64,000 nt of DNA from Eunapius fragilis (taxonomy: Eukaryota > Porifera > Demospongiae > Spongillida > Spongillidae): positions 3,313,922-3,377,921 of the forward strand of contig OY811986.1 of the NCBI GenBank assembly GCA_963681505.1. The letters are read 5' to 3'. The position numbers and the translations under genes are program-made. Shown one piece after another: positions 1 to 32,719 of this stretch (position 1 is its first letter; each line of letters starts with the position of its first letter). A model generated the notes under the pieces. It saw nothing but the letters and a program-made list of their open reading frames with translations, ran no database searches and had not been told where the DNA came from.

Positions 1-706
1 CGCTCCGGCTGAAGATCACTCCGGGTCCCCCCATACAGTAACGGTCTCCCTGGCCCCCGAGCCTGATCCTGCCCTGATCGCTCTCCCGCCCGAACCCGGG
101 AGATCCCATGTAGACGTCCTGCGCAGGGTTGACGCCCTCCAGGAGGTCGCGAAGGCGGTCCACTTTTACGTATACGTCATCGTCCGCCCTCATGAAGAAG
201 TCGTACGCGTCAATGTGGTGATCGAACATATGCCGCAGCATGCCAAACACCTTGCGCTGGGGTGGGTATTGGTTATCGTCCACGTCCGCAAGGGACACCA
301 CCGGTAAATCGGTGGTGGTGGCGGTGATGGTGGACGCGTCGTCCGGACTTCTTCCAGTGTAGAAGTATACGTCTGGAATGGCGTCCTTTGCCCATGTCTG
401 GAATACACCGCGAGCCCTGGTGTCAAGGTATCGCTGTGCCGTGACGACGCCAATGAGAAGCAGCTTGCGAGGGGCGAGCTCTCTGGATAGGTAGCGGTAA
501 CGGAGGCTCGCGTTAAGCGGGGCACGCAGCTGTTGGGAGTGCCACAGGCGGTACTCGGAATCACCGGGTCCGCCTAAATGCGCGCCCTGGGCCTGAAGTA
601 GCACGTGTTCATCGAGTCGCGTCGTCAGATACAACTGGGTCACGAATACACCCAGCGCAAAACCGAGCACCAAGGTAAATGTTTTCTTGCAGGCTCTCGG
701 CCACAT
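1..706 (-). CDS. Chondroitin sulfate synthase-like glycosyltransferase, N-terminal part (incomplete)
   Basis: The frame is open from an ATG at 706 to the window edge (235 codons, no intron). Seen: a short basic N-terminus, a hydrophobic stretch at about residues 10-27 that fits a type II Golgi signal anchor, then a GT31-type fold with LLLIGVVTAQRYLDTRARG (about 83-100), FFMRADDDVYVK (170-181, the DxD-type metal/UDP-sugar motif) and RYCMGGPGVIFSR (222-234). These blocks match the N-terminal GT31 half of CHSY1/CHSY3-type synthases, which polymerise the GlcA-GalNAc backbone of chondroitin in the Golgi lumen. The C-terminal GalNAc-transferase half should lie beyond the window, so CHSY1-like versus CHPF-like cannot be settled. 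The region is much GC-richer than its surroundings. Confidence 0.85.
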   Translation of the reverse strand, partial: MWPRACKKTFTLVLGFALGVFVTQLYLTTRLDEHVLLQAQGAHLGGPGDSEYRLWHSQQLRAPLNASLRYRYLSRELAPRKLLLIGVVTAQRYLDTRARGVFQTWAKDAIPDVYFYTGRSPDDASTITATTTDLPVVSLADVDDNQYPPQRKVFGMLRHMFDHHIDAYDFFMRADDDVYVKVDRLRDLLEGVNPAQDVYMGSPGFGRESDQGRIRLGGQGDRYCMGGPGVIFSRS

Positions 707-894
707 GTATTAATGGACTAGTTTCGTTATATAACCATGCATGGCTGCAGGTGCGATTATTCAATAACTACTATCTCGGGGGCGGCTCCCGGGGGTACTG
801 GGTTAAAATTATTTCGTTTGTCCCCTGGAGCGTGGTAGCGATTTTTAATTACATGTAGTATTGAATACCAGCCATGGTCATATAATGGACACAC

Positions 895-3329: not shown

Positions 3330-5684
3330 TCATCGTGGAATACCATGATCATCAGGCTTTAGCAAAGCAGAGGTGTCTGCTACATTCCCTTGTGCATCCT
3401 CACTGAGATCAAGGTTTGACAGCTGTGCAAAAATACCTGAGCCCAAATCCAAATCAAGAGAGAGTAGTGCACTAATGTCTGCATTGCTTTGAGTCATTGT
3501 GCTCGGCACATAATTTGAAGTAGATTGTCCTCTATCACCCAATGACTCCAATGGCTCGAATAGGAAAGGCTGAATGGAAACTACAGAAGCTTTGAATTAA
3601 CATAAACCATGATATAAGTTCACTCACTTTGCTCAGCAACACCAGCACAATTCCTTGGTATGTCATACACACTGTTGCTGCCTGTACAAGAGATATCATT
3701 ACAATAGAGATGTCACAGTACTGCAATGCTAATATCTATATGAGATATTCAACAGCATCAAAATATATGCTGCTAAATCATAACCAATTTTTTTAATACA
3801 ACTAATTCAAGTTTGTAATTAGGGATCTATATTTTCATCATGTGACCCAGAAGATACAGATCACATTATTATGTTCACTGAACAAATATTAAACTGTGAA
3901 AAGACAATGTTACTTAGGATGTGTCTTTTTATTACTATAAATGTATTTTTTATGCCAATATCTGTGACTTTTCTGCCTGACATATCTAAAACGGTTAAAT
4001 TAGAATTGCGGTTGGTTAGTTAGTTCTGTCAAACGTTATTACTTCTCCATCATTCTTTTGTACCCTGATACAGCCAGTCAAATTAAGCATACACATATAG
4101 AGATAAGTATAATTACATAGAAATGTCAGTGTACATAATCCTTGCATGCATATATTTACGTCACTTAGAATACTTACTGCGTTTCATAGACACTTTATAA
4201 ACATGTAAATAATGTAAACTAGCGACAATTGAATAAAATCAATACATTGTAAATAAAATATTTAGCAATTGTCAAGTCTACACTACCAGCATTCGTGTGC
4301 AGATGGCATACTTTGAGGTTCAAACTTTTCTTCCATAGATATAAGCAGAGGAGTCGTGTCCTGCTCTATTTTGTTGACTGTACTATATACTGCAAGTGAT
4401 TTGATTACTAACAATAAGCATTTATACTAAACAACTCACAAGTGCCAATGCCCTGCTGTACTTTTTGAATACCTATTGAAGTGCAGTAGAGAAGAAAAGG
4501 TGTTAAGAGTAAATAAAAGTCCATATATTAAGCATTCAAACACTGAACACAACAGACTATATGTACCTTTGTATTACACACATGCATATGGGTCGATTCC
4601 CATGAATATAATATTCTCCTGTTTGGAACTCATGGCTTCCAAAAGATAATGAAGGGTTCAGCAATTCTTTACAAGAAACAAGTCAAAAGGTTACTTTATA
4701 AGATATGCCGCCATCATTACAATACCACCATGTCTATATTTTTCATTTGATGCGCTTTAAAATAAGAAACAGATGTGTGAACCTAGAAAAGAATGCTTTT
4801 TTTTTCAGAAAAGAAAAGATGAAATAGGCCTATCTTAATACACCTAGTTAAAATCTTATGGCGATATGCTAACTAATATAGGTCTATTTCATTTCCTATT
4901 CAGTCTGGAGCCTAGTTTCCTTGATTTTTACATAACCATTGCCTATGTAATACCAATGTCCTCATTGTATAGCTTGTGCTATGCATTACAGAGATATGGC
5001 AACTATGGAAAGTTTTAGAAATCAATATACATAATTTCCCTCTCTGGAAACACAGACATACTTCACAGCAGCAAGGTGTTAAAATGATGACTGTGTCACT
5101 TGCTTCAGTTCATACACAGACTTGTGGATGGGTGTGACTTGGTTGTACCAATTAACCACAGAGCTTTGTTTAGTTCTCTGTTTATTGTACAATTGAGCTT
5201 ATCTACATGTATGTGCTTGCTTAAGTGGAGCATGGTGAAGTGCTACCGAAGGCAACAACAGTCACTACACCTCACCCTATCCTATACGTATATTCTCTGC
5301 AACTGCACCCATTTTTGAACTGCACAAGCAAGACATAATGATGTTTGCCGGACAGATGCTATTAAACCTCTAGCCCCCCCCCCCCCCCCCCCCCCATATT
5401 GCCTCGTAATGCATACAATGCATGCACACACACACAATGTACATGCATATCAATACATTATATAGGTTGTCATATCATCTTGTACATAAACATGCCATGT
5501 TCCTTTTAAGTTCATTAATTCAACATACTTGTACTCTTTGCTTCATCCATGGCTTGCGTTGTTTCATGCACAGTACTGTGTGCTGTGAAATATGTGGATT
5601 CATATTGTATAGGTATCCAATAATAACACTTACTTGATCCAGTGCCTAACTGTTCATTAGTCTCAATTGACCTTGCTTGTGAGC
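3330..5684 (-). other. Gene A C-terminal tail exons with tyrosine motifs
   Basis: Six small phase-1 exons (5634-5684, 5529-5582, 4440-4472, 4312-4389, 3628-3681) and the last exon 3330-3580. Tyrosine motifs seen are LYSTVNK, SVYDIPRN (YxxP type, as bound by Crk/Abl-class SH2 domains) and SNYVPS. The final exon is Asp/Leu/Ser-rich with DISALLSLDLDLGSG and ends in TGA. The 33-bp exon at 4440-4472 is the weakest call; it is supported by AG and GT borders and preserved frame. Confidence 0.65.
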
Positions 5685-8600
5685 CTTTAATCAGGCAGCA
5701 ATGCAATGTAATGGGTAAGAATAAAATATGCTCCACGCATCCTATGCCACTTACCAAAGTGTACTACTTTGCCGTAGGGGTCAGTTTTGGAATCAATTTC
5801 TTTCCAGAAGTCATCCATTGTGGGGGTACTATCAACCCTATCACCAATTATCAAAGAATCTTCCAAATGATGATAATTTCCTGATTGGTCAGCAGTTATC
5901 TGACCAGTGATGCTAGCACCCTCTTGTGGGGTAGGAAGGTCAATTCTGTGATATCTTCCCGAGGTACCTGCATGAATTTCATCAGTTTTATCATTGCTTA
6001 TATCCAGCAAAGGTTCAGTTTGAGGAACAGGCTGTGTCCTTAAATGGTTCCTCACATCCTGGCCAATGGTTTCATCACGGAGCTGCCTCTCTACATGATA
6101 CTCTATAAGTTTGTACACCTCATCAGCATGCTGCGTGTTGAAAAAAAATTCTCCAGCACCGGTCTGTGCTCTTCTTCCAACCTCTAAGTTGAATACACTC
6201 CTGTCTCTAGTAAAACTTCTTATCTCCTGGTAGGTCCAGACTACAAGTGGCACTGTTTGGTTGATTTCTATCAGCCTAAGTTCCGTTGGTGTTATCATAA
6301 GGCTGTATGTTCCAACAAGACCTGCTGATGTGGCTGACTTATTTTGCTTGAGAGTCACAATAAATGTATCTATAAGACCACACCGACAGATACAGGTAAT
6401 AATTAACAGTGATCAACATAGTAGTATTATTTCTATCTCTAGTCATTGCCTATACGGATGTGTGGCGAAAAGAAGCTGTGCATTGCCCATAATTATATTG
6501 TAATGAAAGGTAATCGTACTAACTGACCCTAACAATATAATATCCTTTGCACATGCAACTACTCACCAAAGGAATTGATTTGTACCCTTTCTTCATTATC
6601 TGGTTTGCCTTTGTTTGGCAGTGTACCATCAACTGGATGGTATTTTCCTGAAGCAATTGTTTCATCCGACATTGGAGGTTGATGAATGGGCCGAGTCCTT
6701 AAATGGTTCCTCACATCTTGGCCAATAGTTTCATCACGTAGCTGACTTGCAATGTGATGCTCTATAACTTTGTACACCTCATCAGCACACTTCGTATTGA
6801 AAACAAATTCTCCCGCACCAGTCTGTGCTCTTCTTCCAACCTCTAAGTTAAATGTGTTTTTCCCTACATTAAAACTTCTTATCTCCTGGTAGGTCCAGAC
6901 TACAACAGGCACTGTTTGGTTGATTTCTGTGAGCCTAATTTGAGTTGGCGTTATCTCAAGGTTATAGGTCCCAACAAGACCTGCCGATATTGCTGACTTG
7001 TTGTGCTTGAGAGTCACAGTGCATATCTCTGCAAATACGAGAAACAACGAAGTGACACTATACAGCAGGTAGTATCTTCTATGTTTGCTAATAACCCATC
7101 ATTTATGTCAGGGAAGACAATATAAACACCAGAGTAATGGAAATCATTACACCCTGCATTCTCAAACCCAGAAGCAACAAACATTCAAATCAGTTGTCTC
7201 TGACCTGGGTTGATACATGTAGGTATTTGATACTGCAAAAAAAAATGACTGCTATTCATTCATTATCTCAAAGAACAGTGGCTCCACTGTTAAGCCATTG
7301 ATAGTAACGAAGCACAGTGTGCAAATAACAGCTACATGTATAACATACACTGTAGAGTTAGCCAAATGTTGCCACACCAGTACCATGCCTTTCCACAAAC
7401 AAGCATTGCACTGTTCCACCCAAATGGTCTCAGTACCTATGCTTAGGTCCTGTGCAGGTTTGGTGTCTGATGGTGTGTGGGCAGTGTTTCCTTCTGTAAG
7501 CTGCAGGCCTGTAATAAGAGGGAGCAGGTGTGTGCATGTGCACACATGCTTAAGTGCACGAAGTACTAAATAATGTGCACAGACAGCTCTCTCTTAGCTA
7601 AAACCTTCTCTTACATTGCTCATCAGCTTGCATGTGCTGCTTCAGCATATGTATGTCTTCGGTTGAAGCCAATGTCTGTACTTCGAACCCATCTTTACAC
7701 AGAGATTTATCCTGTGAGCCAAGACCTCCACCTGCCTGCTTTGCCTTCACTACATCTGTTGGGTAAATATAATTTCAAGGCACGATATGTAATCATATCA
7801 TAGCTCTAATTGAATGTATGCCAATTCTAAATTTACTACAGTAACATGACGCATCAGAATGAAATTTATTATGAAATGCTGAGGTATATACATATGACGC
7901 ACACACTCCAGACTTCTGATCTTTGCCCCTGCAGCGATATCAGTGCAGACATTACACTCAAGCCTACCAGAGCCCTCATCATCGACAGGTCCACACTGCT
8001 GCTGCTGCTGCTGCTGGAAAGGCGAGGCTTCGTACACATTTTCAGTGGCAGTTGGTTTTCTTCCCACGTCCTTACTCACACCACTGGACTTGACATCACC
8101 ACAGGCGTCCTTCGCAGGGGGTGCAAACAACTGCTGAGCAGCAGCAGGAGGAGGAGGCTGCTTCTCCCTAGGCCTTAATGGGGGCAGTGGTGGGGGAGGA
8201 GGGTTGTTCCTTTGCTCGTGGAGTTGCCTGTGAATGCTCTGCTCAATAGCTCTGAACAGCTCCTTATTGCTCTTTGTCTTGAACACGTAAATACCCGCAC
8301 CAATCCCTGAAGCCTTTCCAATGTCGACCTCGATGCTCTCTTTGCCAAGGCTGAAGCTGCGCAGCTCTGCTAGCGTCCAGGTCATGATGGGCGTGGGAGA
8401 GGTCAGGCTGCACAGATGAACACCAGTTGGAGTAACTTCAAGGTTGTACGTTTCACTAAGTCCGAATAACTTAGCTACCTTGTTCTGCTTCAGAGTCACA
8501 GGGAATATTTCTGATAAAATAGTGGCATCAAGAAACAATGTAAGTAAATTGCGAAAACTACAATTACAATTTTAACAAAACAAGATATAAAAATTTAATT

Positions 8601-11600
8601 AAAATAAAATGTAGGTCCGTAAAATTGATTATTCCATAATTTCCATCATCCCTTATTTAATCAAAATGTGCATAAGAAGATCCTACATCTAGTCCATTTA
8701 ATATCTTGTTTCACTCATTTTTATTTACAGCTGTATAATGGAATCGTTGCCACATAAAGCTACCTAATGCAAATTCCCAGTACATTGAACAGAAACATAT
8801 TGCTTTGCTTGTGTTAAAATGGCAAATGAAAGTTCGTATTGTAATTCATTTAGTTGCTAATGCAGGAGATTGCATATTGTGAGGTCATCTACTGTAGATT
8901 ATACCAACGCGACAAATGCATTGCACGCTGGTACCCCAGTCACAACAAATCCACATCACAAATTTTGACACCACCCCAGTCATACATCTTGACACCATCA
9001 CACAACTTGACACCACATCTTGAACCTAGCCACACACCTCAACACCATATCATGACACCTCCCTTACTTGTAGGCTCGCTGTTCTGTGTGCTGAGTTCCT
9101 CCGATGTTCCCACCCCCTTAGTGATCCCCTTGGCGGTAGTGATGTTGCTTGCAGAGGCCTTCATAGTGGCCAGAGCCACAGAGACCTGGTCAGCCACAGT
9201 GCCCCTGGTATCAGCCACGGCTCCAGCTACCTGAGCTGATGTGGCACCAACCACCTTTGCCACAGCAGTCTGCGTCATAAAGCTGGTATCTAAGGTCTGC
9301 GGTGGCTCTGTGATGACATCTGCAATGCTGTCCGTTAGGCTTCTGCTGTCCTCAGTGGAACCACTGGCTCCGCCTACTGATGAATCTTTGTAGGAAGGAA
9401 TATACATGTATTTTGATCCGATAAATTCGCACTGAGAAGAGTCATACCTCTGTAAATGCCATTGGCATCCATTCTGGTACCATCACTTGGCATGGATAGG
9501 GCCATTTCGCTGAAATCTGCATTTGAATTCAGCAGGCGTTCAGCATCTATAAAAGTGTGTAAATATCTAAATGCAGATCTCAAAAAAATTCTGTACAAGG
9601 AAAATTGGGATACATGAAAAAGAAAAGGAATTGATCATTTATAAAGCCCTGGTTTAGTTATCGTGTGATACTGATTGATCTCTTTCATCAAATAACTGCA
9701 CGTCCCAACTTGAAAACTGGCATATGGGTCAGCAGTTATGATTTTATATCGGGTGACCGCTAACACACTGATGTGCTGAAGCCAACATGCCTCAAACTAA
9801 TCACATTCATGGATAGACGCTAACTTGTACATTCCTCAACGCAAATACCATGTATCTCCACATCAACTACAAATGGATAATAAGTGTATAAGGATCTCCA
9901 GATGGGTTGCAACTGCTCAAATTAAAAACAAGAACAATTCCTCCTTATCTAAAACTAATCACAGAAAGTCCAGTACCCCCCTTACTCCATCCTCCTTCCT
10001 ATCCCCTCCCCATCATGCTCCCCACCTTCCTGTGGAGAGGGCAAAGGTCGGGAAAGAAGTTGCCTGCTTTTCTCCAGCGTAGCGCGACGCTGTTCCCTGT
10101 GTCCACGCAGCTGGTTCTGAATGCTCTGCTGTATAGCTCTGAACAACTCCTTGGAACTTTTGGTGTTGAAAACATACTTCCCAGCGGCAACCCCTGGGGA
10201 TTCACCCACTTCAATTACAATGCAGTCCTTGCCCAGAGTGAAGCTCTTCATCTCATGCAACATCCATCCCATAATGGGTATTGGGGACATTGGTTCAAGC
10301 AGTCGGAAATGTGTCGCTGTGACCTCCACGTTGTATGATGTACCAGTAAGACCACACACCCTGGCAGCTTTGTTCTGCTTCACTGTAACTGCGTATGTTT
10401 CTGAATGGGGGAAGGTTGGCATGAGAATCAATCTTTTTTCACCAAACAACCATGCCATGCAGTTAAACTTTGGAGACCCTTTTTTGAATGTTCAAAGTAC
10501 TTGTTTGCATGAACTTATCACAGTCACCAACTTGGCACCAGTCATACTTTCAATGCAGTGCCATGCTAACATCAATGTTACTTCTACAAAAAACACAATG
10601 GTCATCTTATATTTTTGTATGATGTAGTAACCTTTTCCCTACAAGGTGGGAAAAATTGCACCTATCCTAAATTAGGTGCATGGAATGATTGAAGCAATGC
10701 ATAGAAATGATTCTATATCGATACTCCTGTACACGTCACAAGACTCACCAGTCCGGCTGACAGATGCAGTGACCATTGGCCGTGTGGTGGTGCTTCCCTC
10801 TGCATCCATGCCATACTTGGTCCTTCCATTAGGCATATCATCATTGCTCTGGGCTGTGAAGGGTTGGGGGCAGCCATTGCAGTAAGGAGTGTGGTGTGCG
10901 GCCTTCCAAGGTTGCACCCATGGTAATAAGGCCTAAGGGTGGGGGAGGGGGGGGGGGGGGAACATTACTTACAAGGGTTCCCTGACTGTGAGAGCAAAGC
11001 TTGAGAATCTGAATATGGATTTTCGTTTCTACGCTCAGAACCCTCTGATGAGTCACTCCAAACATTGGTATGGGCATCGCCATCCCTTGGGAATGCCACG
11101 CCATCATTTTCTTTCACATCCGTACAAAAAGTAACTGATGTGCGTGTTTGTGTGTGTGCATGTGTATGTGTGTGTGAGTGTGTCAAACAGCAGGGAATAA
11201 GTATCAATCAGTAATCATTGCATGAGGTGGAGGAGAGACAGAAATGCTAGATTTAAATATTGATTGCAACAGCCTGACACGCATAGTTCAGGAGTGTCTA
11301 CATGCAGTCAGCACATTGGTTCATATGCTACATTAATGAAGGGAGTTTGAAATCTACGGACATGTGGCTTCGAACAAAATAGTTGACATTGGTCCACTGA
11401 GGGTTGGCTCTTTGTATCACGTAATCAACATGGCAAAGAAGTAATATGCCAATGGTACCATCTGGCGTGTAATGAAGGTTACATGCAAGGCTTTTGTACA
11501 GTTACTGTGGCTGTCACTCAGGTTACACACTTGACTTCAGTTGCAAGTGCTACCAGTTCATTGTCATGCCGCCATATTAGAGCGTGAGGCAGTACAAAGT

Positions 11601-14600
11601 GATGGCACAGGGCTTAAGGGAGGAGGGTAGGAAGAGGTTGAAGGGGAGGAGAATAGAGGGGTGGTAAGGGAGGAGTAGTGAGAGGAGGAAGGGAGGGAGG
11701 GGAAAGAGGGAGGAAAAAGGTGAGGGAGGGGAGGAGGAAGGGGTGAAAGAGGGAGGGGAGGAGGAAGGGGTGGGTGAGGGAGGGAAGGAGACAGAGGGAG
11801 AGAGTAAGTTGATTCAAACCATATTATCCATACACTTCTACCAAATATTAATATATGGCCAGCCACTAGACCCACCCCAGGTTTGTACCTAAAGATTGTC
11901 TTACAAAGGGCAATTAAAAGCACCTTAAAAGAAACTGATTCTAGTGAACATTCTTGTACTCACTTCCTCTATCCTCAGTCTTCGCAACAGGTGTAGCAGG
12001 TGTATAGCCAGCGGCTCCAATTGGAGTAGCATGTGTGTGGCCCACAGTCCCTGCTGGAGTAGCGGGTGTATAGCCAGTGGCTCCAATTGGGGTAGCAAGC
12101 ACATTGCCCGTAATTCCTGCAGAGGTAGTGGGTGCAGCTCCAATTGGAGTAGCATGTGTGTGGCCCACAGTCCCTGCTGGAGTAGCGGGTGTATAGCCAG
12201 TGGCTCCAATTAGAGTAGCATGCGTGTGGCCCACAGTCCCTGCTGGAGTAGCAGGTGTATAGCCAGTGGCTCCAATTGGAGTAGCATGCGTGTGGCCCAC
12301 AGTCCCTGCTGGAGTAGCAGGTGTATAGCCAGTGGCTCCAATTGGGGTAGCAAGCACATTGCCCGTAATTCCTGCAGAGGTAGTGGGTGCAGCTCCAATT
12401 GGAGTAGTATATGCAAGATCCATGGGGGTGACGGGTGTATAGCCTATGATTCCAATTGGAGTAGCATGTACATAGCTCGTATTTCCTGCTGGAGTAGCAG
12501 GTGTATAGCCGATGTGTCCTACTGAAGTAGCTACATGGCTACTGAATTTCACTTCTCCGTGGTCCATTTGAATATTTGAAACCAGGTTTGCATGCATCAC
12601 TGCAATTCCTGCTGAGTTCCCTTGTGTCTCCACTGTTCCAGCAGCTGGCATGTCAGCCTCAGGTGTCTCAGCAATGTCCACATCCACAAGCAAAGCGTCC
12701 TTGCTGCTGCTGTTCCTGGTGAGGTGAGCATCTCCTTGGCTGGCCCCTGCCAGTGTTGAGCACGCTGCAGAAGACTTCATGAGACCTGCAGCACAGTAGG
12801 AGTTACCAGTAACACATAGCAGGCTTGCATACTTATATAGGGACAGCGGGCCTGCATATTATCATATGGAGGCACCAATACTGTGTCTGTGTGTGCGTGT
12901 GTGTGCACAGATCAAAACACTGCAATGTTTCCTATATTCTCTTCTGCTATTCAGTGTTATGTTCCATGGACTGTGGTTATTAAATGAAAAAAACACTCGA
13001 ATCATGAACCAAGCAATGAAACTGACTATAAAGGGGTGTGGGGTGTGAGCTGAATATTTGCACTACTTTTACACCTTGCAGAGGTTTGGAGCAATATTGT
13101 ACTATGCATACATGTATATACGCAGCATCAATCGACTGCACATTCAATGCGACACAAGGGTTGGGACATGAGTCATGCAAGTTGCATAGAGCGGGGAATG
13201 AAGGGTTTAAGTGATAGAAGTAGGGGTGGGGTTAAAGTGGGAGATCGGGGAAATGGATGAGGTGGGGTTGGGGGGCAGGGTTGGAGGGAGGCGTCTGGGT
13301 ACATACTTTGAACGTCTTGGCCAGTGGCGTAGTCATTCTCCACCACTGGTTTGACGTGTAGGAGGTGTGGCTTCTTAAAAGGAGGTGGAGAATCGCTCAA
13401 GCACTTGGGTTTGAGGGGAGCACAGTCATCACTGGGCTGAGGTATGGTCTGGGCACCCCCATCCGAGCCCCTCCCCCTGCCCATGAGCTGCTTCTCGATG
13501 TGGTGCTGCAATACTCTCAGCACCTCCCTCGCCTCCTTGGTGAGAAACACAAAAGTCCCAGCACCAGTGCCCGACGAGCGCCCACACTCCACCTCCATGC
13601 TGCTCTTGTCTGCGCTGAAGCTCTTGAGCTCGTGGTATGCCCATCCCATGGCCGGCACAGACCCGCCCATGCCAATGAGACGAATGTGGGTGGGAGTGAG
13701 CTCAAGGGTGTAGGTGCCAGTGAGACCCAGCCTTTTGGCATCCTTGTTGGCCTTGAGGGTTACAGTAAACTGAGCTGCAGTGGGGGGAGTGGGAGAAATG
13801 ACTTTTTGTACTCACACTATACAACACTGATATTACCGTACATATCAAAACATATTCTCCATACTTGCTATGGAAATAACCTTGCATTTGTCACTCTTTA
13901 CTTCACAATTTAACGTTTTATCATCTTGATTTAGTAGAATTCCGTAGTGGCTATTACGGCTACAATTGATCTATTTACAAGACACTTCTGTTTTGCTCAA
14001 ATGACACCAATAAAGGATTGGGCAATACTAAAGTGAAGGTTGATAACTCAACAGTAACTCTTTAAAGTATTGCTTAATGTTAAACTGCCGTCTACGCGTA
14101 GATGATTGTATATAGTATGCTACCTACCCACGTGTGTTTAGATGGTTCAGTAAGAAAATGGAGGATATTAATGACCGAAAATTATAAAAGTACGAGTAGA
14201 TGGTTTTGACCGATTTCGTCTACGTGTACATGTAGATGGTCCATCGATTTTAACATTAACTATGCATAATAATTTAGTAGGTACCAATAAAAATTGCTAA
14301 TCTAAGTGATACAAAAATGAAAATGGTAAACACATTGTGACTAACATGTAGGAATAATTATTGCAATGATGCAGACATTGGATTTGCGGTAGAAGCCTCT
14401 TTTATTGGCTCAATTCAACATACAGTGTATGATTGTGTGCATGATGACATAAAACCTTAAGTTAATGAATATGGTGTGATTGATTTTAATACATAAAAGT
14501 GAACAGAATCTGCTAATTGAGTAACAATGTTGTCCCGCTTATTCTTTCTTTGAAACTGCAGTTTGAGTATGATCTATAGGCTGGTTCAAGCATTAAGCCC

Positions 14601-15696
14601 ACCTTCAGTCTCAAAACCCTACATGTATAGCACCTACCAGAAGAAATTGTAGTTGTGGCAGTTGGCTGATCCTGTTTGAGGTTGGATTGTGGCTTTTTTC
14701 TATCTGACTCGGACATGGGCTGGGGCAGACCTGGTGCTACAGTAGCACCTTTCAGCTTGGGTGGGTCTGCTTTACTAGTACTTGGTGCCACGGAAGCACC
14801 ACCCTTCAGTAGGGGTGGGTGCGGTGTAGAAGCATCCTGCACCACATTTAGTGCTGCAGTAGCACCCTTTTGTTGGGGTTGATCCATCAAACCTGGCGCC
14901 AGTGAGGACGCCTTTGGATTAAATGGGTCCATCACAGCTCCCACAGTCTTGTTGGCATTTTTGGCTAGGTCACCTGCAACAGCTGCCCTGATCCCCTCCA
15001 TCCAACACTCCATTTCATCCCAAGATTCACAACAGAATACATGGGTACCTTTAAGGGAGGGAGAAGTTAATAAAAATAAATGCCCAAGGTGACCAAGTAA
15101 AGAACAGAAGTTGGGAAAGGAGGGACGGGGGGGGGGGGGGAACCATTAGTAGAAATGCCATTCGCATGGTTAAAACGCTAGCTGTTATATGGTTAATATA
15201 TTGCTTAGTGAATTGAAGCCAGAGAAATAAAATATAATCCTGTAAAACCCTCTGCTGGCATGGCTGCAAGCCTGCAATACGTCCGTTATGGCGCTGATAA
15301 AGTACAGGATCAAAACTGCGGGCGCGAGATGCAAATCTTAAGCTTCCCTTTCCTTACCAATCTGGCTGGTGAGTTCGAACACGTACGGATGCGACTTGTC
15401 TCCAGTAGTCTGGCGGCATTCTCCGAATCCCCTAAGCAGTATCGTCCTTCTGCTCCCGCCAACCATCTCTCCAGCCTCGTCATCGTAGTACTCTATGCGC
15501 ACCACTCCATCCGCAGCGGTGTCTTGCAGTACAAACCACCGCCTCTGCCACTTCTGGAGGGGGGGGGGGGGGGGGGGAGCCCACGCCAGAATAGGAATAG
15601 TAAACAGAAAAGTCATTGTCAAATACCGATCACCTTCGTGATGTGTGAAGTAGACAGCTTCAGCAAGTATCCCCTTAGCTTGGTCGACAGAGCCAT
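3330..15696 (-). CDS. Gene A: PH domain + five IRS-type PTB domains adaptor/scaffold
   Basis: Modelled as 21 exons, about 1,782 aa, ATG at 15696 and TGA at 3330. Exons in order: 15634-15696, 15358-15553, 14638-15048 (PH and linker), 13307-13774 (PTB-1), 11964-12785 (T/P/G repeats), 10973-11110, 10749-10853, 10026-10400 (PTB-2), 9448-9546, 9068-9385, 7968-8510 (PTB-3), 7615-7755, 7437-7508, 6567-7028 (PTB-4), 5755-6369 (PTB-5), 5634-5684, 5529-5582, 4440-4472, 4312-4389, 3628-3681, 3330-3580. Every junction keeps the frame, and all introns after exon 2 are phase 1. PH plus IRS-type PTB is the DOK/IRS adaptor plan: membrane recruitment plus binding of phosphotyrosine receptors. Usual DOKs have one PTB. 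The PTB-2 donor is ambiguous (10026 keeps phase; 9986 would not). One gene rather than several is inferred from the single PH domain and the phases; transcripts could split it. Confidence 0.75.
5374..5395. repeat. Homopolymer C tract
   Basis: A run of 22 C in an intron of gene A. Similar C or G homopolymers recur at about 10940-10960, 15122-15140, 15559-15577, 17370-17394, 33482-33499, 42690-42702, 43070-43093 and 44941-44960, a marked feature of this genome. Confidence 0.9.
5755..6369 (-). other. Gene A PTB-5 exon
   Basis: Encodes DTFIVTLKQNKSATSAGL, TYSLMITPTELRLIE, VVWTYQEIRSF, LEVGRRAQTGAGEFFFNT and DEVYKLIEYHVERQL, with both pTyr-contact arginines. The exon continues about 100 residues past the domain with acidic linker and ends at a GTAAGT donor (after 5755). 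Linker tyrosines such as SGRYHRID and SGNYHHLE look like internally repeated motifs. Confidence 0.88.
6567..7028 (-). other. Gene A PTB-4 exon
   Basis: Encodes EICTVTLKHNKSAISAGL, TYNLEITPTQIRLTE, VVWTYQEIRSF, LEVGRRAQTGAGEFVFNT and the helix DEVYKVIEHHIASQL. Both pTyr-contact arginines are present 15 residues apart, as in IRS-1 and DOK1. It is strikingly similar to PTB-5 just downstream, including the post-domain stretch DETIGQDVRNHLRT, so the two arose by recent tandem exon duplication. Confidence 0.88.
7968..8510 (-). other. Gene A PTB-3 exon
   Basis: Encodes KIFPVTLKQNKVAKLFGL, TYNLEVTPTGVHLC, TWTLAELRSF, DIGKASGIGAGIYVFKT and ELFRAIEQSIHRQL: an IRS-type PTB with Arg and Lys at the two pTyr-contact positions. 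It is followed by proline runs (a possible SH3 or EVH1 ligand) and a polyglutamine stretch of about seven codons, mostly CAG, at about 7999-8020 (CTG on the plus strand). The donor is after 7968. Confidence 0.85.
10026..10400 (-). other. Gene A PTB-2 exon (atypical pTyr pocket)
   Basis: Starts ETYAVTVKQNKAARVCGL and continues SYNVEVTATHFRLLE, GWMLHEMKSF, EVGESPGVAAGKYVFNT and ELFRAIQQSIQNQL. The fold signature is intact, but the second pTyr-contact arginine is Glu (GES instead of GRR) and the first is Lys, so classical phosphotyrosine binding is doubtful. Downstream residues are basic, then Pro-rich. It resembles PTB-3 most (shared FRAI-QSI-QL helix). Confidence 0.8.
11596..11812. repeat. Polypurine/polypyrimidine tract in gene A intron
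   Basis: More than 200 bp of almost uninterrupted G/A on the plus strand (C/T on the sense strand of gene A), made of GGAGG, GAGGAAGG and GGGAGG blocks with a partial duplication. It lies in the intron after the minisatellite exon. Reading frames in it give only Ser/Leu/Pro low complexity and are not genes. Confidence 0.8.
11964..12785 (-). repeat. Gene A coding minisatellite exon (11-residue T/P/G-rich units)
   Basis: Exon 5 encodes about 274 residues. From about 12530 down to 11980 it is built of 33-bp units coding alternating 11-mers of the type ATPIGATGYTP and ATPAGTVGHTH, with a variant block APTTSAGITGNVL used at least twice. Units are nearly identical at DNA level, so copy number is probably variable. 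It has symmetric phase-1 borders (acceptor before 12785, donor after 11964), so skipping it would keep the frame. It is a Thr/Pro-rich flexible spacer between PTB-1 and PTB-2; its function is unknown. Confidence 0.85.
13307..13774 (-). other. Gene A PTB-1 exon
   Basis: An IRS-type PTB domain occupies the first two thirds (about residues 224-325 of the protein): QFTVTLKANKDAKRLGL, then TYTLELTPTHIRLIG, GWAYHELKSF, GRSSGTGAGTFVFLT and a closing helix EVLRVLQHHIEKQL. At the two pTyr-contact positions (15 residues apart in IRS-1 and DOK1) it has Lys and Arg. The exon ends in a Pro-rich linker. The next exon upstream is the PH linker, so PH and PTB-1 form the DOK-like head of the protein. Confidence 0.85.
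14940..15696 (-). other. Gene A PH domain (exons 1-3)
   Basis: Exon 1 (15634-15696) gives MALSTKLRGYLLKLST, the first PH strand with the KxGYL-type start. Exon 2 (15358-15553) gives KWQRRWFVLQDTAADG and continues to HPYVFELTSQI. Exon 3 opens with THVFCCESWDEMECWMEGI, the C-terminal PH helix with its invariant Trp. PH domains bind phosphoinositides or membranes. Exon 2 is 196 bp, the same length as the matching exon of gene D, which supports common descent. The rest of exon 3 (to 14638) is a low-complexity linker with repeated GAT(V/A)AP-like and PPLLKGGA-like pieces. Confidence 0.85.
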
Positions 15697-15888
15697 GGCT
15701 GGTTGTGAAGGGGCGTGGTCCTTTCCTTTGATTTTAACCCTTCAGTTGGAGTCGATCGCTTCGTACAGATTCTCTGCTGTTTCCGTCGAGTGCTGATGCT
15801 TAATGGTAATTCCAGTGACATTCACGTTGGTCATATATGTCCATGGGCAATGAATTAATTAATCAAGTTGACCCCACCCACAAAGACG
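15697..15888. promoter_or_regulatory. Head-to-head promoter region of genes A and B
   Basis: Only 192 bp separate the ATG of gene A (minus) from the ATG of gene B (plus), so both transcription starts must lie here or within upstream exons. No TATA box is convincing. Shared, possibly bidirectional control of the two paralogues is inferred from spacing alone. Confidence 0.6.
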
Positions 15889-17494
15889 ATGGAGAGGAAG
15901 GGTTATTTGGACGTGACAGCTGTTGTGTCGGGGAACGACAAGGACAAGGTGGGGTGGGGTGGGAGGGATCGATGGTTGCTACCTGCTCACATGTCTGCAC
16001 CATTCGTCCTTGGTTTCCGCAGAGGGCGTCAAAGCTGTGGGGCGTGCTGAACCCTGCGGGCCAAGGAGGCGCGTCCCTGGACCTGTACGACAGCGAGTAC
16101 TTCGCAACAACGGGGAGCATGCGCAGTTCCATTCCACTTAAAAGCTGTCGACGTATCGAAGTCAGCAAATCGATCCAACACACGTTCGAACTGACATGTA
16201 GCACTGGTAATAACTACAATATAATGCGCCCTGCCAATATTAATTTTAGTGTAATTGCAACTCTTGTCCTCTCCCGCCCCCATCCCGCCAAGGTGCTTAT
16301 AGGTTTGGATGCAGCTCCCGGGAAGAGATGGACGGATGGATCGAGGACGTAAGACGAGCAACGGGGCAAGCCAAGCCCAGTGGAAGCTCTGATTCGCCCT
16401 CCAACGTTCGGGCTGATGTGGGAGGCTCCTCCGGTACGTTGCGCGTCCTCCGCACATGACAGACCCACCACTCACCGCGCTACGCTTAAAAATATAGGAA
16501 CCTTCAGCGTCACCTTGAAACAGAATCAGGTCGCCAAACGTTTAAAGTTCACTGGTGTGTACAACCTCCGCATCACCATCAAGAACATTAGCCTGTACGA
16601 GGAGGAGTCTGACGTCAGGGTAGCCACGTGGACTTACGACCAATTGCGAAAGTTCACGTCGTACAAAAGCCGTATAGAGATCGAGACGGGAAGAAGATCG
16701 GAAACGGGACCTGGTGTGTACATCTTCATGACCCCGCGATCCGATGAGATCAGTCAGCTGATCACGTCCAACATCCGAAGGATTGATGAAAAGATAAAAC
16801 GGATGAACGCCGCCGCCTCCGGAAAGGACAATGGCAGGGTCCTTCCCGACCCTTTTGAAAACCCCTGTTACGACAATCATATAATCGGCTCTTCGGCGGC
16901 ATTAAGTGGTACGTTAAGGATTTAAAACGTTTTTTTTTTTTTTAATAATTTTGCTTTGCACTGCTTCAGAAAAGGCTAAAGACAAAGTGCCTCGCGATCC
17001 TTTTGAAAATCCTTGTTACAGCGATAATCCATATCTGATTAATACTCCAACTGCACACCCCGCTTTAGACGGTAGGCCTAACGAAACACATCACTAGGAT
17101 AACATGTACTGATGGACGGGTACGGTTGGTATTGCATTGCTGCCTACGAGTGTACTATGGAAGGCCTGCATCGTATTAAAATTATTGTGTCCAGGGAAAG
17201 GGATGTGTAACTGAGGTAGGGGGAGGATCCTTAGAGGAGGTGGGTACTGTGGAGAGTATATATAGCCTGCTGGCCTATGACCTGGGGGCAGGGGTGTTAT
17301 TTTTAATTCATGGTTACCCTCTTAATTGGATGAGCAAATTACATTGCCTAACCACCACCCCCACTCCAACCCCCCCCCCCCCCCCCCCCCCCCCTTTCAC
17401 TTTGATGGTGTGGATCTTTTATAAGCCATATGTCTTACATATATGCTGGGAATGGCCATCGTTCACCTTAAATTATGTTCGCACTCTGCCATGA

Positions 17495-22534: not shown

Positions 22535-25507
22535 CTATGCAGCGCATTGTACAGAGGGCGAGATAGGAGTACCGCCATCTGTAACATCACCTTGCATTAA
22601 GATGTATTCATCCTCTTCCACTGGAGGGCTTGTCGAGGGAATGCATGAACCTGCTGGAGCGGCACCATACAACTACACTCACTACATCTCTAAGTGTTGT
22701 TCTAGTAACAGTCTGCCCTGAACAACTCACTACACATGAATACACATGCCAATACCTTTCATTTGATCTGGTTCCTTTGATGCAATCCCTGTAGATATAA
22801 AATTTTAATGACCTGGCTGGCCCAGATGTGCTCTTTAATAATTTCTGGATACTGTACCTCCTTCCTTTGTGTTCCACAGCTCTGCATACCCATCAGTAGA
22901 AATCGGCACAGTTGGAAGAACTGTTTTTGGGAAGTCCACAGGGTCATATGCAGATGCATGCAAGTACAAAGGTTATATGCATTCAGACAGAAACACTACT
23001 GCTCACAATAGAATGTTTTTATTAATGCATTTTTAGGAATCAATCACTACCTGTAATGTGTATTCCACAGTTCAACTTTTCCTATCTCACAATGTTTGGG
23101 TTCTAACTATCCTGCTTTGATTTGTATACTGATCTGCCATGGGGAGTTTAGAAAATATATTCCGATACATCAGTTTTGTAGATATCGATTTTTAAATATA
23201 ATGTACGCAAAGGCTTGGTAACCAGTATGCATGGCTCTACGACCTCTACCTGCTCTATATGCATGCACAGTTCATTCTACTATTGCTACCCTTCACCTGG
23301 AGGTCCCCTGAAGTTAATATCTTCGTAGCTGCCACTTGCATCGAGCATACGTTCAGCTATATAAGGAGAGAAGTTACAATGTCATGGTCATACAGGGAAT
23401 GCATTCATGTGTGGATATTCGTTTCTATTTTACCATGAATAATTATAAATTACCCACAATGTACTTACGTTGTGGTTGTTGTAGGGGTGTTCTGATAGCA
23501 CCCCGTCCTTTAGCGTCATGGTGAAGATGCAATCCTTTGTTTCGAAATGAGGCAAGGGAGAGAGCTGGAATTTCATATGGTAACGGACCAGTAGGAGTAT
23601 GGTTCACAGACTCTGCATCTGTAACTTGCGGTGTCTGGTCAGGGTGTTTGATAGCAAGAGTTTGTTCAGAAATCGGTCCAGTTGTAAGAACTGTATTTGG
23701 GAAGTGCATGGAGGCAAGTACGAAGGATAGTTGTATAGACAGGTCGCATATGCAGATGCATGCAAGTACAAAGGTTATAAGCATTCACTACTGTTCAATA
23801 TAAAATCCATCACTACCTCGATCTAATGTGCATTTCAAGCTTGGTCCAACTTTCCAATCTCACAATGTTCTCCTGCATGCTTTGATTTGCATGTATGCTG
23901 GTATGACTAAGGCCACAGGGAGTGTGGAAAATATATTTTGAAACATCAGTGTTGTTTGTTCAGATATCCATTTGTTTGAAACTAATGCAGGCAAAGGAGT
24001 GCATGCTCTTGGCATTATGCATGGTTCTACCACTCTACCTGCTATTTAGGCATGCTTATACCATGTTGCGTGGATGAAGTTGTAACTTCTCTCCTTATAT
24101 AGCTGAATGCATTGCTCGATGCAAGTGGCAACTACGATGATATTAACTTCAGGGGACCGCCAGGTGAAGGGTAGCAATAGTAAAATTAACTGGTATATTA
24201 CTTATACTTGGCGTGGGGTATTCTTTTTTTTATTTTTTATTTGCACCATGAATCCTATATTAAATAGGCGGACTAACGTTGTGGTTGTGGTGGGGGTGTT
24301 ATGATAGCATCACGTCCTTTAGCATCATGGTGCAGATGCAATCCCTTATTTCGAAGTGAGGCAAGGGAGAGAGCTGGAATTTCGTATGGAGACGGATCAG
24401 TAGGAATATGGTTCACAGAATCTGCAGCTTTAGCTTGCGGCGTCTGATCAGACGCGAGAGTTTGTTTTGCAAGAGCTCGGACATTATTCTTAATCAATGT
24501 GTACACTTCTTCCGCACATGGAGTGATGAAAATGAATGTCCCTGGGCCAGTTTGAGCTCTTCTTCCTGCTTCAATTTCTACACACTCGGCATTGGAACGG
24601 AAGTTCCTTATCTGATCGTATGCCCATGTTGCTATTGTTAGATTGTCCTCTAGCAGCGAAATATCTTGAGGAGTAACACGAAGTTTGTATGCTGCAGTGA
24701 GATTCATTCCCAATGCTGTAGTGTTCAGCCTCAGAATCACGTCAAAAATCCCTGAAATATTTTGGGTGGTAAAGACAATGTGCATATGCTTTAAACGCTC
24801 CATACAATAGCTTGTTAATGCTGACTTGGTTAGAGATTATATTACATCATCATGCAATGGCTCGTTAATTGGATAAATTATGCACATGTGAGTACTGTAT
24901 GCATATATACCGGCGTACCAGTGCGGCGTATCTGACTTGAAGATTTAAAGTCTTCTGAATGTTCTGCTTGACCTGTTTCGGCCACTCTTTTTATGTTAAT
25001 GGCCGCCGATTTTCGCTCTCCATTTGAGCCTCGCGACGATTTGAGTCGCTCGTCAATTAAAGCACGTTTAATATCGTCCACCCACTCGTTCGCTTCTTTG
25101 TGAGTGCTACATCCAAACCTGAGGTGGCCTAAAATAAGGCCAATTATACGTATATTGTAACGGTCTCATGTAATATTAAATGTAGACCTTTATAACGCCA
25201 CTAACTTACCGCAATCGCACCACAACTCGAACATATAGAGGTCAGACTTGCTTCTTTCGATTCTGTGACAATTCATCAGATGAATTACGCCATGGCCCTC
25301 TCCCGACTCGTTGTTGTAATGATCAAGGTACACACCCCTACCGCTCCCATGATTTAATAGTACCCACCGCTTTGACGGTTTCTGTTAGTAAGAGCATCAA
25401 ATGAAACCGCGAGTGATCGATTGATCATGTGGAAACCTCACCTCGATACCTTCTTGGAGGTATACATCCAAGTAGCCCTGCCGTGGAACCGCTTGTCTTT
25501 CAGCCAT
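22535..25507 (-). CDS. Gene C: PH-PTB adaptor with duplicated and chimeric tail exon
   Basis: Eight exons, about 461 aa: 25442-25507, 25210-25381, 24919-25128 (PH and linker), 24278-24751 (PTB), 23469-23690, 23297-23356, 22858-22920, 22535-22653. PH pieces are RQGYLDVYL, KPSKRWVLLN and RFGCSTHKEANEWVDDI. The PTB has IFDVILRLNTTALGM, TWAYDQIRNF and EAGRRAQTGPGTFIF, with both pTyr-contact arginines. Tail motifs are PYEIPAL (twice), SYEDINF, GYAELW and DEYILM (a YxxM motif, the class bound by PI3K p85 SH2). Exon 5 repeats most of the exon 4 tail and begins like exon 7, so it looks chimeric (see findings). Introns after exon 2 are all phase 1. It starts 380 bp from a divergent small gene. Confidence 0.8.
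22858..24470. repeat. Tandem segmental duplication inside gene C
   Basis: Two copies of a roughly 0.8-kb unit. About 23660-24470 runs from the exon 4 tail into the start of exon 5; about 22880-23660 runs from the rest of exon 5 to exon 7. Coding pieces (QTPQ, SVNHxPT, PYEIPALSLAS, RNKGLHLHHDAKGR) and intron pieces (GCAGATGCATGCAAGTACAA, TCTACCTGCT) are shared in the same orientation, apart from one inverted exon. Confidence 0.8.
24103..24163 (+). pseudogene. Inverted, frameshifted copy of gene C exon 6
   Basis: On the plus strand, CTGAATGCATTGCTCGATGC up to GGGACCGCCAG, with AG before and GT after, copies gene C exon 6 (minus, 23297-23356), but in the opposite orientation and with one extra base (61 versus 60 bp). 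The extra base brings a TGA into frame. Flanking intron bases (TTCTCTCCTTATATAG and GTGAAGGGTAGCAATAGTA) are inverted with it, so a segment of roughly 100 bp was flipped. Confidence 0.8.
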
Positions 25508-27004: not shown

Positions 27005-27649
27005 AAGTGGGGGACAGCATCGAGGAAGTATATAGAAATACGGTAGTCCGGTGAAGCAGCAATATCAAGGTCCATGCATCAATGGATAGTATTTTTTATC
27101 TTCGATATTGGGATTAAGTATTTAGATGATTTTATTGCTATGTAGAACTTGAATTTTTCAAGATAAAAAACAGTTAATTCTTTCAATTCCATATTTTGGA
27201 CTCATTTCGGTACCGCGTTGATTTTTTCCCGCTATAGCCGGTTTCTTTGGGGCTTGAGGTACTATCAGCAATTTTTCGCACCTTTTTACTGTGTTCCGTT
27301 CGTTAACTACACATTTCTGAAGTTTTTACCCTACTTTCACCTTTCTTACGTGGCTTGTGTCAATCTGCGGTTTGCTAAAGCAACCATGAAACTCAACACT
27401 TTAGGCCCGGATGTTTTGCTACATGCACGTAATCAATTAAATATGGCGGTGCCTAGTGAGAACGCGAGCGCTTTACAGTTGAGATCCCTGGAGGCTACGA
27501 TCGCACTATTGAAGAGCAAAAGGCCTCGCGCCCTTGCAGAGGAACAAAAACAAGATATTCTCGTCGCATACCACTCGCTGCAAGCCGAAGATGCCAAGGA
27601 ACTGTTGGAAAATCCAGAACAGAAGCCTAAGGGACACTATCAACAGCGG
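27005..27649. repeat. Left terminal inverted repeat, 645 bp
   Basis: Reverse complement of 29128-29772. Identity stops abruptly after CACTATCAACAGCGG, within the transposase coding frame. Confidence 0.92.
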
Positions 27650-30820: not shown

Positions 30821-32719
30821 TCAGATCTCATGAGGGTTGGGTAGAGATGAGGTGATTCCTTCCCATTCCTTCTCCAAATCTTTCTGGGACAGTTGGCCCA
30901 TCATGTGAGCTGCCTGTAGCTCTGTGCACGCTGCCAGGTCTTCCTCCATGTTTGCAAGAATCTCAATAAATGACTCATCTATATCATCAATTCCAATGGG
31001 TTCATCCATCTGATCCAGAGGATTGTGAGCTCCTTCAGTGAGTGGTTGAATAGCTGTGCAATCAAAGAATGCATGCATTTATAAATGCCTTATAATAGAC
31101 ACTGTGCATGCAGACTTTGCATGTACTTACTATTTGTATAGAGTGTTGCAGGGTTTAATTTGACTCCCTCAGAAGAAACAGAGTGTGACATATTTCTGGA
31201 TTTTTGGCCATCTACTGCATGTGTTCCTGTAGCAACATTTGTGCGACACGTGTGCATGTATACATTTTAATTTATGTATGTGATACGAGCAGAACAGATA
31301 TCATGTCTTATAGAGGCTGTGTATTTGACTACTTGCCTTTCTGATGTGCTGTGCTGGTACCTTGAGGGTTAGGCTCAAGTGAGTCATACACAGAAGCCAT
31401 CTCAAAAGGGTCGCCCTGTTTTGCATGGTATGCTCCTTGTATTCCCTCAACCTGCTCCATCTTCGTGTTATAGGAACTGATGCTGTGCGTAAGGCCTTGT
31501 ACTTTCCCCCTCTGCTTCTTGATGCGCTCCACTGATGCTATGGCCTCCCGCTTATCCATCGCATTCTTCTCACTGCACAACTTCCTGATATTGGCATCAA
31601 GCACTCTGAACAGCTCCCTGGAGCAGGTTGACTTAAAAATGAATTTTCCTTCGCCAGTTTGAGCTTTCTTCCCTGCCTCAAAGGAAACGAGTCCCGTCTT
31701 TTTACCGTAGTTCTTTAGTTCCTTGTAGTACCATCGCGCGACCTGTACTTTGGAATCGGCCGAGACGAGCGTAATGTGATCCGGGGTGACCTCAAGGTTA
31801 TACGGTCCTGAAAGCTGCAACCTTTGGGCGGTCTCGTTCTCATCCATAAACACACGATATGTTCCTAAGAAGGTGTATACGCGCATGCAAATCAAATGAC
31901 TTGTTCCATTTGCGAAGTACGCCTATGTATGCAGTACCTGACAGTACTGTCGTATCATGATCGTCTTCATCGCGGTATACGCTCTTTGACTTTCCCTTCC
32001 TCATCTTCACACGATCGCGACTCACAGCATCTCTGATACCTTCAACCCATTGGTTTAGGTACGCTTGAGAATCGCATGCAAATACGTGGCGTCCTATATA
32101 GTCGGCGTACAAATAACAGTCAGTGCTTTAACAACTACTACTGAATTGGATTAGTTTGTAGGTATAGGGTCCACTTACCAATTTGAGTAGTAAACTCAAA
32201 CACAAATGAATGCGTTTCATCCCCCGAGATTTGCTGCAGCTGCTCATAGCCTCTTAGAGGGATCGTTTTTCTATCCAAATCAGTGAATTGTTTCGACTCA
32301 TTTTCAAAGTAATCAAGGCGCACTATTCCATCTATCGTCGTGTCGTAGAGAACAAACCATCGCTTTGACCATCTCTGATCAAGAAGGAGGGGCAGATAAA
32401 TAAGGGGTGGTGGAGTGGAGCGAGGAAATGGGATGATAGGAGTGCAGAAGGAGGTAGGAGTGAAGGAGGGAGGGGTGATAGCATGAGGAGAGTGATGGAG
32501 AAGGAGTGAAGGACTGAATAAGGGGTTGGAAGGAGGTGGTGGAAGGTGGGGGCCTCAAAATGAACATTTCAAACGCTAGGGAGCTAGAGCTCGCGAGAGA
32601 GCGAGAGAGAGCGTGTACGGTGGAAGGAAACTAACACAATTACAGTCATCTGTGGTGATTACCTTGAACTTGCTTCTTACAGGCAATTTGTGCATGTAGC
32701 CCTTCAGCCTTACTGCCAT
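30821..32719 (-). CDS. Gene D: PH-PTB adaptor (DOK-like), compact
   Basis: Six exons, about 413 aa: 32663-32719, 32179-32374, 31938-32093 (PH and linker), 31361-31864 (PTB and tail), 31131-31226, 30821-31053. PH pieces are VRLKGYMHKL, RWSKRWFVLYDT, SFVFEFTTQI and FACDSQAYLNQWVEGI. The PTB has TYRVFMDENETAQRL, RWYYKELKNYG and EAGKKAQTGEGKFIF, with Lys at both pTyr-contact positions. Tail tyrosines are SVYDSLEPN and TLYTN; the last exon is acidic (EPIGIDDIDESFIEIL). The PTB exon could instead end at 31337 with a GC donor (AAAG|GCAAGT), adding eight residues. Exon 2 has the same length (196 bp) as that of gene A, so A and D are probably the closest pair. It starts 103 bp from the divergent DDX41 gene. 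Confidence 0.82.

What the first reader, a model, noticed from the sequence alone, without database searches (positions are those of the whole stretch)
3330..15696. A PH protein with five tandem IRS-type PTB domains
Seen: five separate exons on one strand each encode an IRS-type PTB signature, preceded by a single PH domain and followed by tyrosine-motif exons and one stop codon. All 21 exons keep frame. Known: DOK and IRS adaptors have one PH and one PTB. Inference: a multivalent phosphotyrosine scaffold able to bridge several receptors or to cluster them. I know of no described five-PTB DOK relative.
Basis: partly seen in the sequence, partly recalled or inferred. Interest (0 to 1): 0.88.

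Follow-up and report, generated by a model that had tools for sequence, protein, structure and literature searches.

The report
Sponge DOK-like adaptor, five PTB domains
A freshwater sponge gene appears to encode an adaptor protein related to the animal DOK family, but with five copies of the phosphotyrosine-binding domain where known relatives have one; only two of the five keep the full standard phosphotyrosine pocket.

Summary
Five minus-strand exons each encode an IRS-type PTB domain over Pfam's cut-off, behind one PH domain. A joined protein (some linkers left out) gives 5 PF02174 stretches and 1 PF00169 stretch; a 22-exon model reads 1808 aa to one final stop. The genome is Eunapius fragilis, chromosome 16. 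Three neighbouring genes share the PH/PTB exon template with one PTB each; the window has 4 PH domains for 8 PTBs and no detectable PH between the five. Other assemblies hold relatives of exons E, C, B and A, apparently on one contig; conservation in these exons stops at the predicted splice sites, so they are internal exons.

Corrections: the Arg triad that reads phosphotyrosine in DOK1 is complete only in A and B; D has lost it, C has lost it in relatives too, E is partial. In the 22-exon model 20 of 21 introns are phase 1, so 'keeps frame' is weak evidence, and exon skipping would keep frame too. One full-length product versus alternative PTB cassettes needs transcripts. Verdict: real, conserved, DOK-derived new variant; receptor bridging is unproven.

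The parts
15634..15696 (-). first coding exon, ATG at 15696, start of PH domain (MALSTKLRGYLLKLSTSHITK)
   Evidence: the three neighbouring genes have an equivalent M..GY(L/M) first exon ending in phase 0; part of the PH match
15358..15553 (-). PH domain, first half exon (phase 0 in, phase 1 out)
14638..15048 (-). PH domain, second half plus Pro-rich linker (phase 1-1)
13307..13774 (-). PTB exon E, first of five, linker Tyr motif VVENDYATGQDVQ; phase 1-1
   Evidence: Pfam IRS 39.1 bits; relative P0011, 63% identical over the query, keeps VVENDYATNQDVQ
11964..12785 (-). linker exon with 22-aa tandem repeats (GYTPATPAG...); no Pfam family over cut-off
   Evidence: open frame with acceptor and donor; phase-1 symmetric exon coverage of the E-D interval exceeds 100 of 100 shuffles
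10973..11134 (-). linker exon (NENPYSDSQ), acceptor weak
   Evidence: model only
10749..10853 (-). linker exon
   Evidence: splice signals and frame
10026..10400 (-). PTB exon D; all three pTyr-contact arginines replaced (K/E/S); phase 1-1
   Evidence: Pfam IRS 30.7 bits; AlphaFold2 PTB fold, mean pLDDT 83.7, best PDB match DOK1 PTB
9448..9546 (-). linker exon (ANGIYR)
   Evidence: splice signals and frame; D-C interval exceeds 100 of 100 shuffles
9068..9385 (-). linker exon
   Evidence: splice signals and frame; D-C interval exceeds 100 of 100 shuffles
7968..8510 (-). PTB exon C, Pro-rich linker, Tyr motif ATENVYEASP; phase 1-1
   Evidence: Pfam IRS 42.8 bits; relatives P0012 and P0014 keep EN(V/L)Y(D/E)xSP
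7615..7755 (-). linker exon
   Evidence: splice signals and frame; C-B interval reached by 6 of 100 shuffles, so weak
7437..7508 (-). tentative linker exon, donor uncertain
6567..7028 (-). PTB exon B, full Arg triad, Tyr motif SGKYHPVD; phase 1-1
   Evidence: Pfam IRS 64.1 bits; relatives P0008, P0010
5755..6369 (-). PTB exon A, full Arg triad, tail with GRYHRID, GNYHHLEDS and FWKEIDSKTDPYGKV; phase 1-1
   Evidence: Pfam IRS 64.9 bits; relatives P0002-P0005 keep the tail up to the donor; PTB part pLDDT above 90
5634..5684 (-). tail exon
   Evidence: splice signals and frame
5529..5582 (-). tail exon
   Evidence: splice signals and frame
4582..4635 (-). tentative tail exon
   Evidence: model only
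4440..4472 (-). tentative tail exon
   Evidence: model only
4312..4389 (-). tentative tail exon
   Evidence: model only
3628..3681 (-). tail exon with NSVYDIPRN (YxxP motif)
   Evidence: splice signals and frame
3330..3580 (-). last coding exon, stop at 3330
   Evidence: open frame after an acceptor
15889..16922 (+). neighbour g2, PH + one PTB, head to head with the focal gene (ATGs 193 bp apart); 3' end not determined
24276..25507 (-). neighbour g3, PH + one PTB; 3' end not determined
31332..32719 (-). neighbour g4, PH + one PTB; 3' end not determined

Best explanation
It is one gene of the freshwater sponge Eunapius fragilis that arose from a DOK-like PH+PTB gene by repeated tandem duplication of its symmetric (phase 1-1) PTB exon. 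The product, about 1.8 kDa-thousand residues scale (1808 aa in my model), would have one N-terminal PH domain, then five PTB modules separated by disordered linkers that carry conserved tyrosines. Most likely mechanism: the PH domain brings the protein to the membrane; the C-terminal pair A/B binds phosphotyrosine motifs of receptors or of other docking proteins; linker tyrosines, once phosphorylated, recruit SH2 proteins; E, C and D have diverged and probably bind peptides in another way or act as spacers. Shown here: gene anatomy in the DNA, domain identity, exon phases, internal-exon nature, conservation in other assemblies, pocket residues. Inferred: one full-length transcript, membrane recruitment, phosphotyrosine binding, SH2 recruitment.
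For: Five IRS and one PH domain in the joined protein (9 for single exons). Four PH first halves, four PH second halves and eight PTBs in the window; no PH half with E below 1 between the five PTB exons (profiles built from the window's own copies). Each of the four genes has its own M..GY(L/M) start exon. Open frames of A, B, C and E hold no ATG upstream of the PTB, so they need an upstream coding exon; D holds two. B to A intron is 197 nt, too short for another gene start with a PH. Relatives of E, C, B, A in other assemblies match up to the predicted splice sites and diverge beyond them. B versus A: dN 0.14, dS 0.44. DOK1 is the best PDB match of the PTB profile and of both predicted folds. 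Tree: E, C, B/A groups hold other-species members.
Against: No transcript was seen. AATAAA occurs inside the gene on the coding strand at 14406, 8725, 7870, 5186 and 3933 (no shuffle control), so shorter transcripts are possible. Three of five pockets lack the full Arg triad. No relative of D other than the 99% one was found. The same contig for E, C, B and A in another species is read from equal 'longest contig' lengths only. Phase-0 chains also exceed shuffles in the E-D and D-C intervals, so linker exons are not individually proven. The PH domain's best PDB match is PLEKHA5, not a DOK.
Confidence: 0.7

Rival explanations
1. One gene, but PTB exons are alternative cassettes: transcripts join the PH exons to one or a few of the five, giving DOK-like proteins with different PTB specificities.
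For: All five PTB exons are phase 1-1 and interchangeable in frame. A and B are adjacent, 75% identical duplicates separated by a 197-nt intron. Divergent pockets fit different specificities.
Against: Each PTB exon has its own linker and its own tyrosine motif, so they are not simple substitutes. Linker exons lie between E, D and C.
Confidence: 0.2
2. Several genes: PTB units have their own promoters and make separate PH-less PTB proteins.
For: The D open frame has two in-frame ATGs upstream of the PTB. AATAAA signals lie in several introns. In Monosiga HMTK1 three PTBs were predicted but only the third was amplified from cDNA (passages of PMC3082566).
Against: A, B, C and E have no upstream in-frame ATG in their open frames and end in splice donors rather than stops, also in relatives. 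No PH or start-type exon precedes them.
Confidence: 0.08
3. A decaying array: some PTB exons are relics without a function.
For: D has lost all three pTyr-contact arginines and C has lost them in two relatives. D has no relative outside the 99% one among the 15 proteins found.
Against: All five are open and over the Pfam cut-off. D folds confidently as a PTB. C and E are kept in other assemblies with their tyrosine motifs. Pairs of PTBs with unsaturated dS have dN below dS.
Confidence: 0.05

Closest known systems
DOK family (DOK1-7)
   Same: N-terminal PH followed by IRS-type PTB and a tyrosine-bearing tail; DOK1 PTB is the nearest solved relative by sequence and fold; PH/PTB combination stated as characteristic of Dok and IRS (passage of PMC7260276)
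   Different: Five PTBs in place of one; long linkers between PTBs; only two complete Arg triads
IRS family
   Same: PH plus IRS-type PTB
   Different: PTB profile scores IRS1 lower than DOK1/2 (44 versus 71 and 60 bits); no YxxM outside a folded domain in the model
FRS2/FRS3
   Same: IRS-type PTB
   Different: PH domain at the N-terminus in place of the myristoylation site
Choanoflagellate HMTK kinases (Monosiga HMTK1)
   Same: Up to three PTB domains in one predicted protein (passages of PMC3082566)
   Different: PTBs are related to Gulp/Numb, with a tyrosine kinase domain and no reported PH; no kinase domain here
Fe65
   Same: Two PTB domains in one adaptor (abstract of PMC5425604 in listing)
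   Different: WW domain, APP-binding PTBs of another class; no PH domain mentioned in the abstract

Membership tests
DOK family | N-terminal PH domain | tested here: met
   PF00169 49.3 bits, residues 7-110
DOK family | IRS-type PTB domain | tested here: met
   PF02174 over the cut-off in 5 of 5 exons
DOK family | exactly one PTB domain (recalled; PH/PTB pair) | tested here: not met
   five stretches
DOK family | PTB closer to DOK than to IRS or FRS2 | tested here: met
   DOK1 70.6 bits, DOK2 59.9, FRS2 49.9, IRS1 44.1; Foldseek best DOK1 for D and A
DOK family | PH closest to a DOK PH | tested here: not met
   11 PDB sequences at E<=0.01, best PLEKHA5, none named DOK; PH domains are poor markers of family
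DOK family | three pTyr-contact arginines | tested here: inconclusive
   complete in 2 of 5 (A, B), not in C, D, E
DOK family | tail tyrosines in YxxP context (recalled) | tested here: inconclusive
   two YxxP among 40 Tyr of the model: YTTP in the repeat exon, YDIP in a tail exon; exons not confirmed by transcripts
IRS family | many YxxM motifs in the tail (recalled) | tested here: not met
   the one YxxM in the model lies inside PTB A
FRS2/FRS3 | N-terminal myristoylation site, no PH | tested here: not met
   starts MALSTK and has a PH; FRS2 criterion in passage of PMC7260276
HMTK-type PTB kinases | tyrosine kinase domain | tested here: not met
   no kinase family in the joined protein

The most novel reading that the evidence does not exclude
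A PTB array in which every unit except possibly D pairs a PTB domain with a conserved tyrosine motif just before its splice donor (ENDY in E, ENxY in C, GKYH in B, NPYG in A). Canonical units (A, B) of one molecule could bind phosphorylated linker motifs of another, so that kinase activity turns the protein into a membrane-tethered polymer or condensate; the phase 1-1 exons would let splicing set the valency. This would be a sponge-specific, exon-tunable multivalent phosphotyrosine scaffold.
Probability: 0.15. Interest if true: 0.8.

Novelty: new variant of a known kind. Interest (0 to 1): 0.55.

Why it matters
Known PH/PTB docking proteins carry one PTB, and their output depends on one receptor contact. 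A conserved five-PTB version in sponges would show that the docking protein family was built up in valency by exon duplication outside bilaterians, and gives a natural system to ask what several PTBs in series do: avidity, receptor clustering, or division of labour between phosphotyrosine-reading and non-reading PTBs. RNA-seq and an Ensembl annotation of this species exist, so the main question can be answered quickly.

Tried and rejected
Led nowhere: protein search 1 with residues 1-860 of a joined query, 0 hits among 7981 scored candidates; the later hits suggest the collection holds single open frames of such contigs, so this does not speak against the architecture. Genome contigs and viral contigs, 0 confirmed loci each. 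The first unforced gene prediction inserted implausible micro-exons and split PTB exons C and A; replaced by a model with eight forced exons and a hand-chosen exon list. In the first tree P0005 was cut wrongly; redone.

Considered and rejected: other PF02174 hits in the genome as more multi-PTB genes. Those on C1, C4, C10 and C15:3.83 Mb read as talin-like FERM F3 by eye. Two on C15 at 5.34 Mb are in two separate long open frames. Assembly artefact: rejected because near-identical E, D, B and A also occur in a second assembly, all with contig length 267591, perhaps the deposited alternate haplotype (inferred).

Full report
Where it is. The window lies at C16:3313922-3377921 of a 218,937,333-base, 24-contig genome. 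A genome note for the freshwater sponge Eunapius fragilis gives 218.91 Mb in 23 chromosomes plus a 28.5-kb mitochondrial genome (passages of PMC12616128). I saw 15 of the 24 contig lengths; 14 agree with the paper's printed values, and C5 is 11.68 against 11.69 Mb. I take the organism as E. fragilis odEunFrag1.1, chromosome 16.

The observation. Five minus-strand exons match PF02174 at 39.1, 30.7, 42.8, 64.1 and 64.9 bits (E, D, C, B, A; cut-off 22). A joined protein gives five IRS stretches and one PH stretch. My 22-exon model runs from ATG 15696 to a stop at 3330, with 1808 residues and no internal stop. A gene finder with eight forced exons and free phase gave 26 exons, so the number of small linker and tail exons is uncertain.

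How strong 'in frame' is. 20 of the 21 introns in the model are phase 1, the first is phase 0. The PTB exons are symmetric, so joining any of them keeps frame. In 100 dinucleotide shuffles per interval, coverage by phase-1 symmetric candidate exons was never reached in E-D (993 nt against a mean of 80) and D-C (417 against 22), was reached 2 times in the A-to-end interval (240 against 46) and 6 times in C-B (141 against 23); PH2-E and B-A hold none. Phase-0 candidates also exceeded shuffles in E-D and D-C (0 of 100 each) and were rarely reached in C-B (2) and A-end (5), while phase-2 did not. So the intervals look partly coding, but single linker exons are not proven.

One gene or several. The window holds four first halves and four second halves of PH domains and eight PTBs; the next-best PH candidates anywhere in the window have E of 0.23 or more, and between the five PTB exons the best is E 2.5 (the profiles were built from the window's own copies). 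The three neighbours g2 (+), g3 (-) and g4 (-) have the same order: a start exon M..GY(L/M) ending in phase 0, PH, PTB. g2 is head to head with the focal gene, ATGs at 15889 and 15696. Open frames of A, B, C and E contain no ATG upstream of the PTB; D contains two. The B-A intron is 197 nt. These facts favour one gene with one start. Against: AATAAA on the coding strand at 14406, 8725, 7870, 5186 and 3933, and the Monosiga HMTK1 precedent, where three PTBs were predicted but only the third was recovered in cDNA (passages of PMC3082566).

Relatives elsewhere. Two protein searches returned 15 distinct proteins (5 of 6641 candidates; 15 of 1435, including those 5). One, P0009, is the window's own C. 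Four (P0001 A, P0006 B, P0007 D, P0015 E) are about 99% identical and share a longest-contig length of 267591. Ten are more distant. Of these, P0011 (E), P0012 (C), P0008 (B) and P0002 (A) share a longest-contig length of 1172134; P0014 (C) and P0004 (A) share 8729; P0003 and P0013 (both A-like) share 461237; P0005 (A-like) and P0010 (B-like) stand alone. Equal contig lengths suggest, but do not prove, that these lie together. No distant relative of D was found. Organisms are not named in the results.

Exon ends. In relatives, similarity to E, C, B and A begins at the predicted acceptor and ends at the predicted donor; what follows is unrelated. Tyrosine motifs in the linkers are kept: VVENDYATxQDVQ (E; P0011), EN(V/L)Y(D/E)xSP (C; P0012, P0014), GKYHP(V/I)D (B; P0008), and WxxIDxxxNPYGxV (A; 4 of the 5 distant A-like proteins, DPYG in the window). 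AlphaFold2 gives A a PTB with pLDDT above 90, a disordered stretch 112-179, and a short helix before the NPYG motif.

Pockets. In DOK1 three arginines contact pTyr (Arg54, 69, 70 in that paper's numbering; passage of PMC4479986). At these columns the window has A RRR, B RRR, C RKA, D KES, E KRS; g2 RRR, g3 RRR, g4 KKK. Relatives: P0011 (E) RRA, P0012 (C) QKA, P0014 (C) QQA, P0008 (B) RRR, P0010 (B-like) KRR, P0002, P0004, P0005 RRR, P0003 and P0013 RRK. So two of five are canonical, E is partial, C and D are not. D still folds as a PTB (mean pLDDT 83.7) with DOK1 as best PDB match.

History. In the tree E, C+D and A+B form groups: E with P0011 96.2/97, C+D 98.3/99, E+C+D 87.3/94, A+B 91.5/86 (SH-aLRT/bootstrap). 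E, C and A+B include proteins from other assemblies, so these duplications are older than the split from them. P0008 and P0002 group together (69.8/60) although their tails match B and A: conversion or independent duplication. Whether the array is older than the split from g2-g4 is not resolved (44/41). B-A is the youngest pair: 75% amino acid identity, dN 0.14, dS 0.44; the other pairs have dS of 1.3 or more or saturated.

Kinship. The PTB profile hits DOK1 at 70.6 bits, DOK2 59.9, FRS2 49.9 and IRS1 44.1 among PDB chains. The PH domain's best PDB match is PLEKHA5, with no DOK among 11 hits; this is against a simple DOK label but PH domains carry little family signal (my judgement). I call it a DOK-derived variant, not a DOK, because the single-PTB feature fails.

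Mechanism. Most likely a membrane-tethered docking protein: PH to lipid, A/B to phosphotyrosine, linker tyrosines to SH2 proteins, E/C/D with other or weaker ligands. Only anatomy, conservation and pocket residues are shown; the rest is inference from DOK and IRS biology (recalled). PTB-mediated self-association of DOK proteins is recalled and was not found in one search.

Literature. Searches in the held open-access library listed no paper naming a PH protein with several IRS-type PTBs; exact phrases such as 'five PTB domains' were found in none, 'three PTB domains' in one (HMTK1) and 'several PTB domains' in one. Subscription papers and preprints are not covered, and genome annotation may already contain the gene.

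Noticed in passing
window 15634-15948: The focal gene and g2 are head to head with start codons 193 bp apart, so they may share a two-way promoter.
   Followed up: partly
window 23446-23784 (-) and 24276-24836 (-): The linker behind the g3 PTB (SPYEIPALSLASLRNKGLHLHHDAKGR) seems to be present a second time downstream without a PTB: a duplicated tyrosine-motif exon.
   Followed up: no
window 27167-29610: A DDE_3 transposase frame whose end is repeated in inverted orientation at 27167-27688, sitting between g3 and g4.
   Followed up: partly
window 48542-51133 (+): An 864-codon frame matching Transposase_21 (tnp2).
   Followed up: partly
window 52100-54420: A tandem array with a repeat of about 164 bases, seen in the frames.
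   Followed up: no
G000 C1, C4, C10 (loci L021-L027): Pfam IRS hits that read as talin-like FERM F3 domains; six near-identical ones lie on C1 between 14.9 and 15.3 Mb.
   Followed up: partly
window 2-709 (-): Fringe-like glycosyltransferase frame running off the window edge.
   Followed up: no
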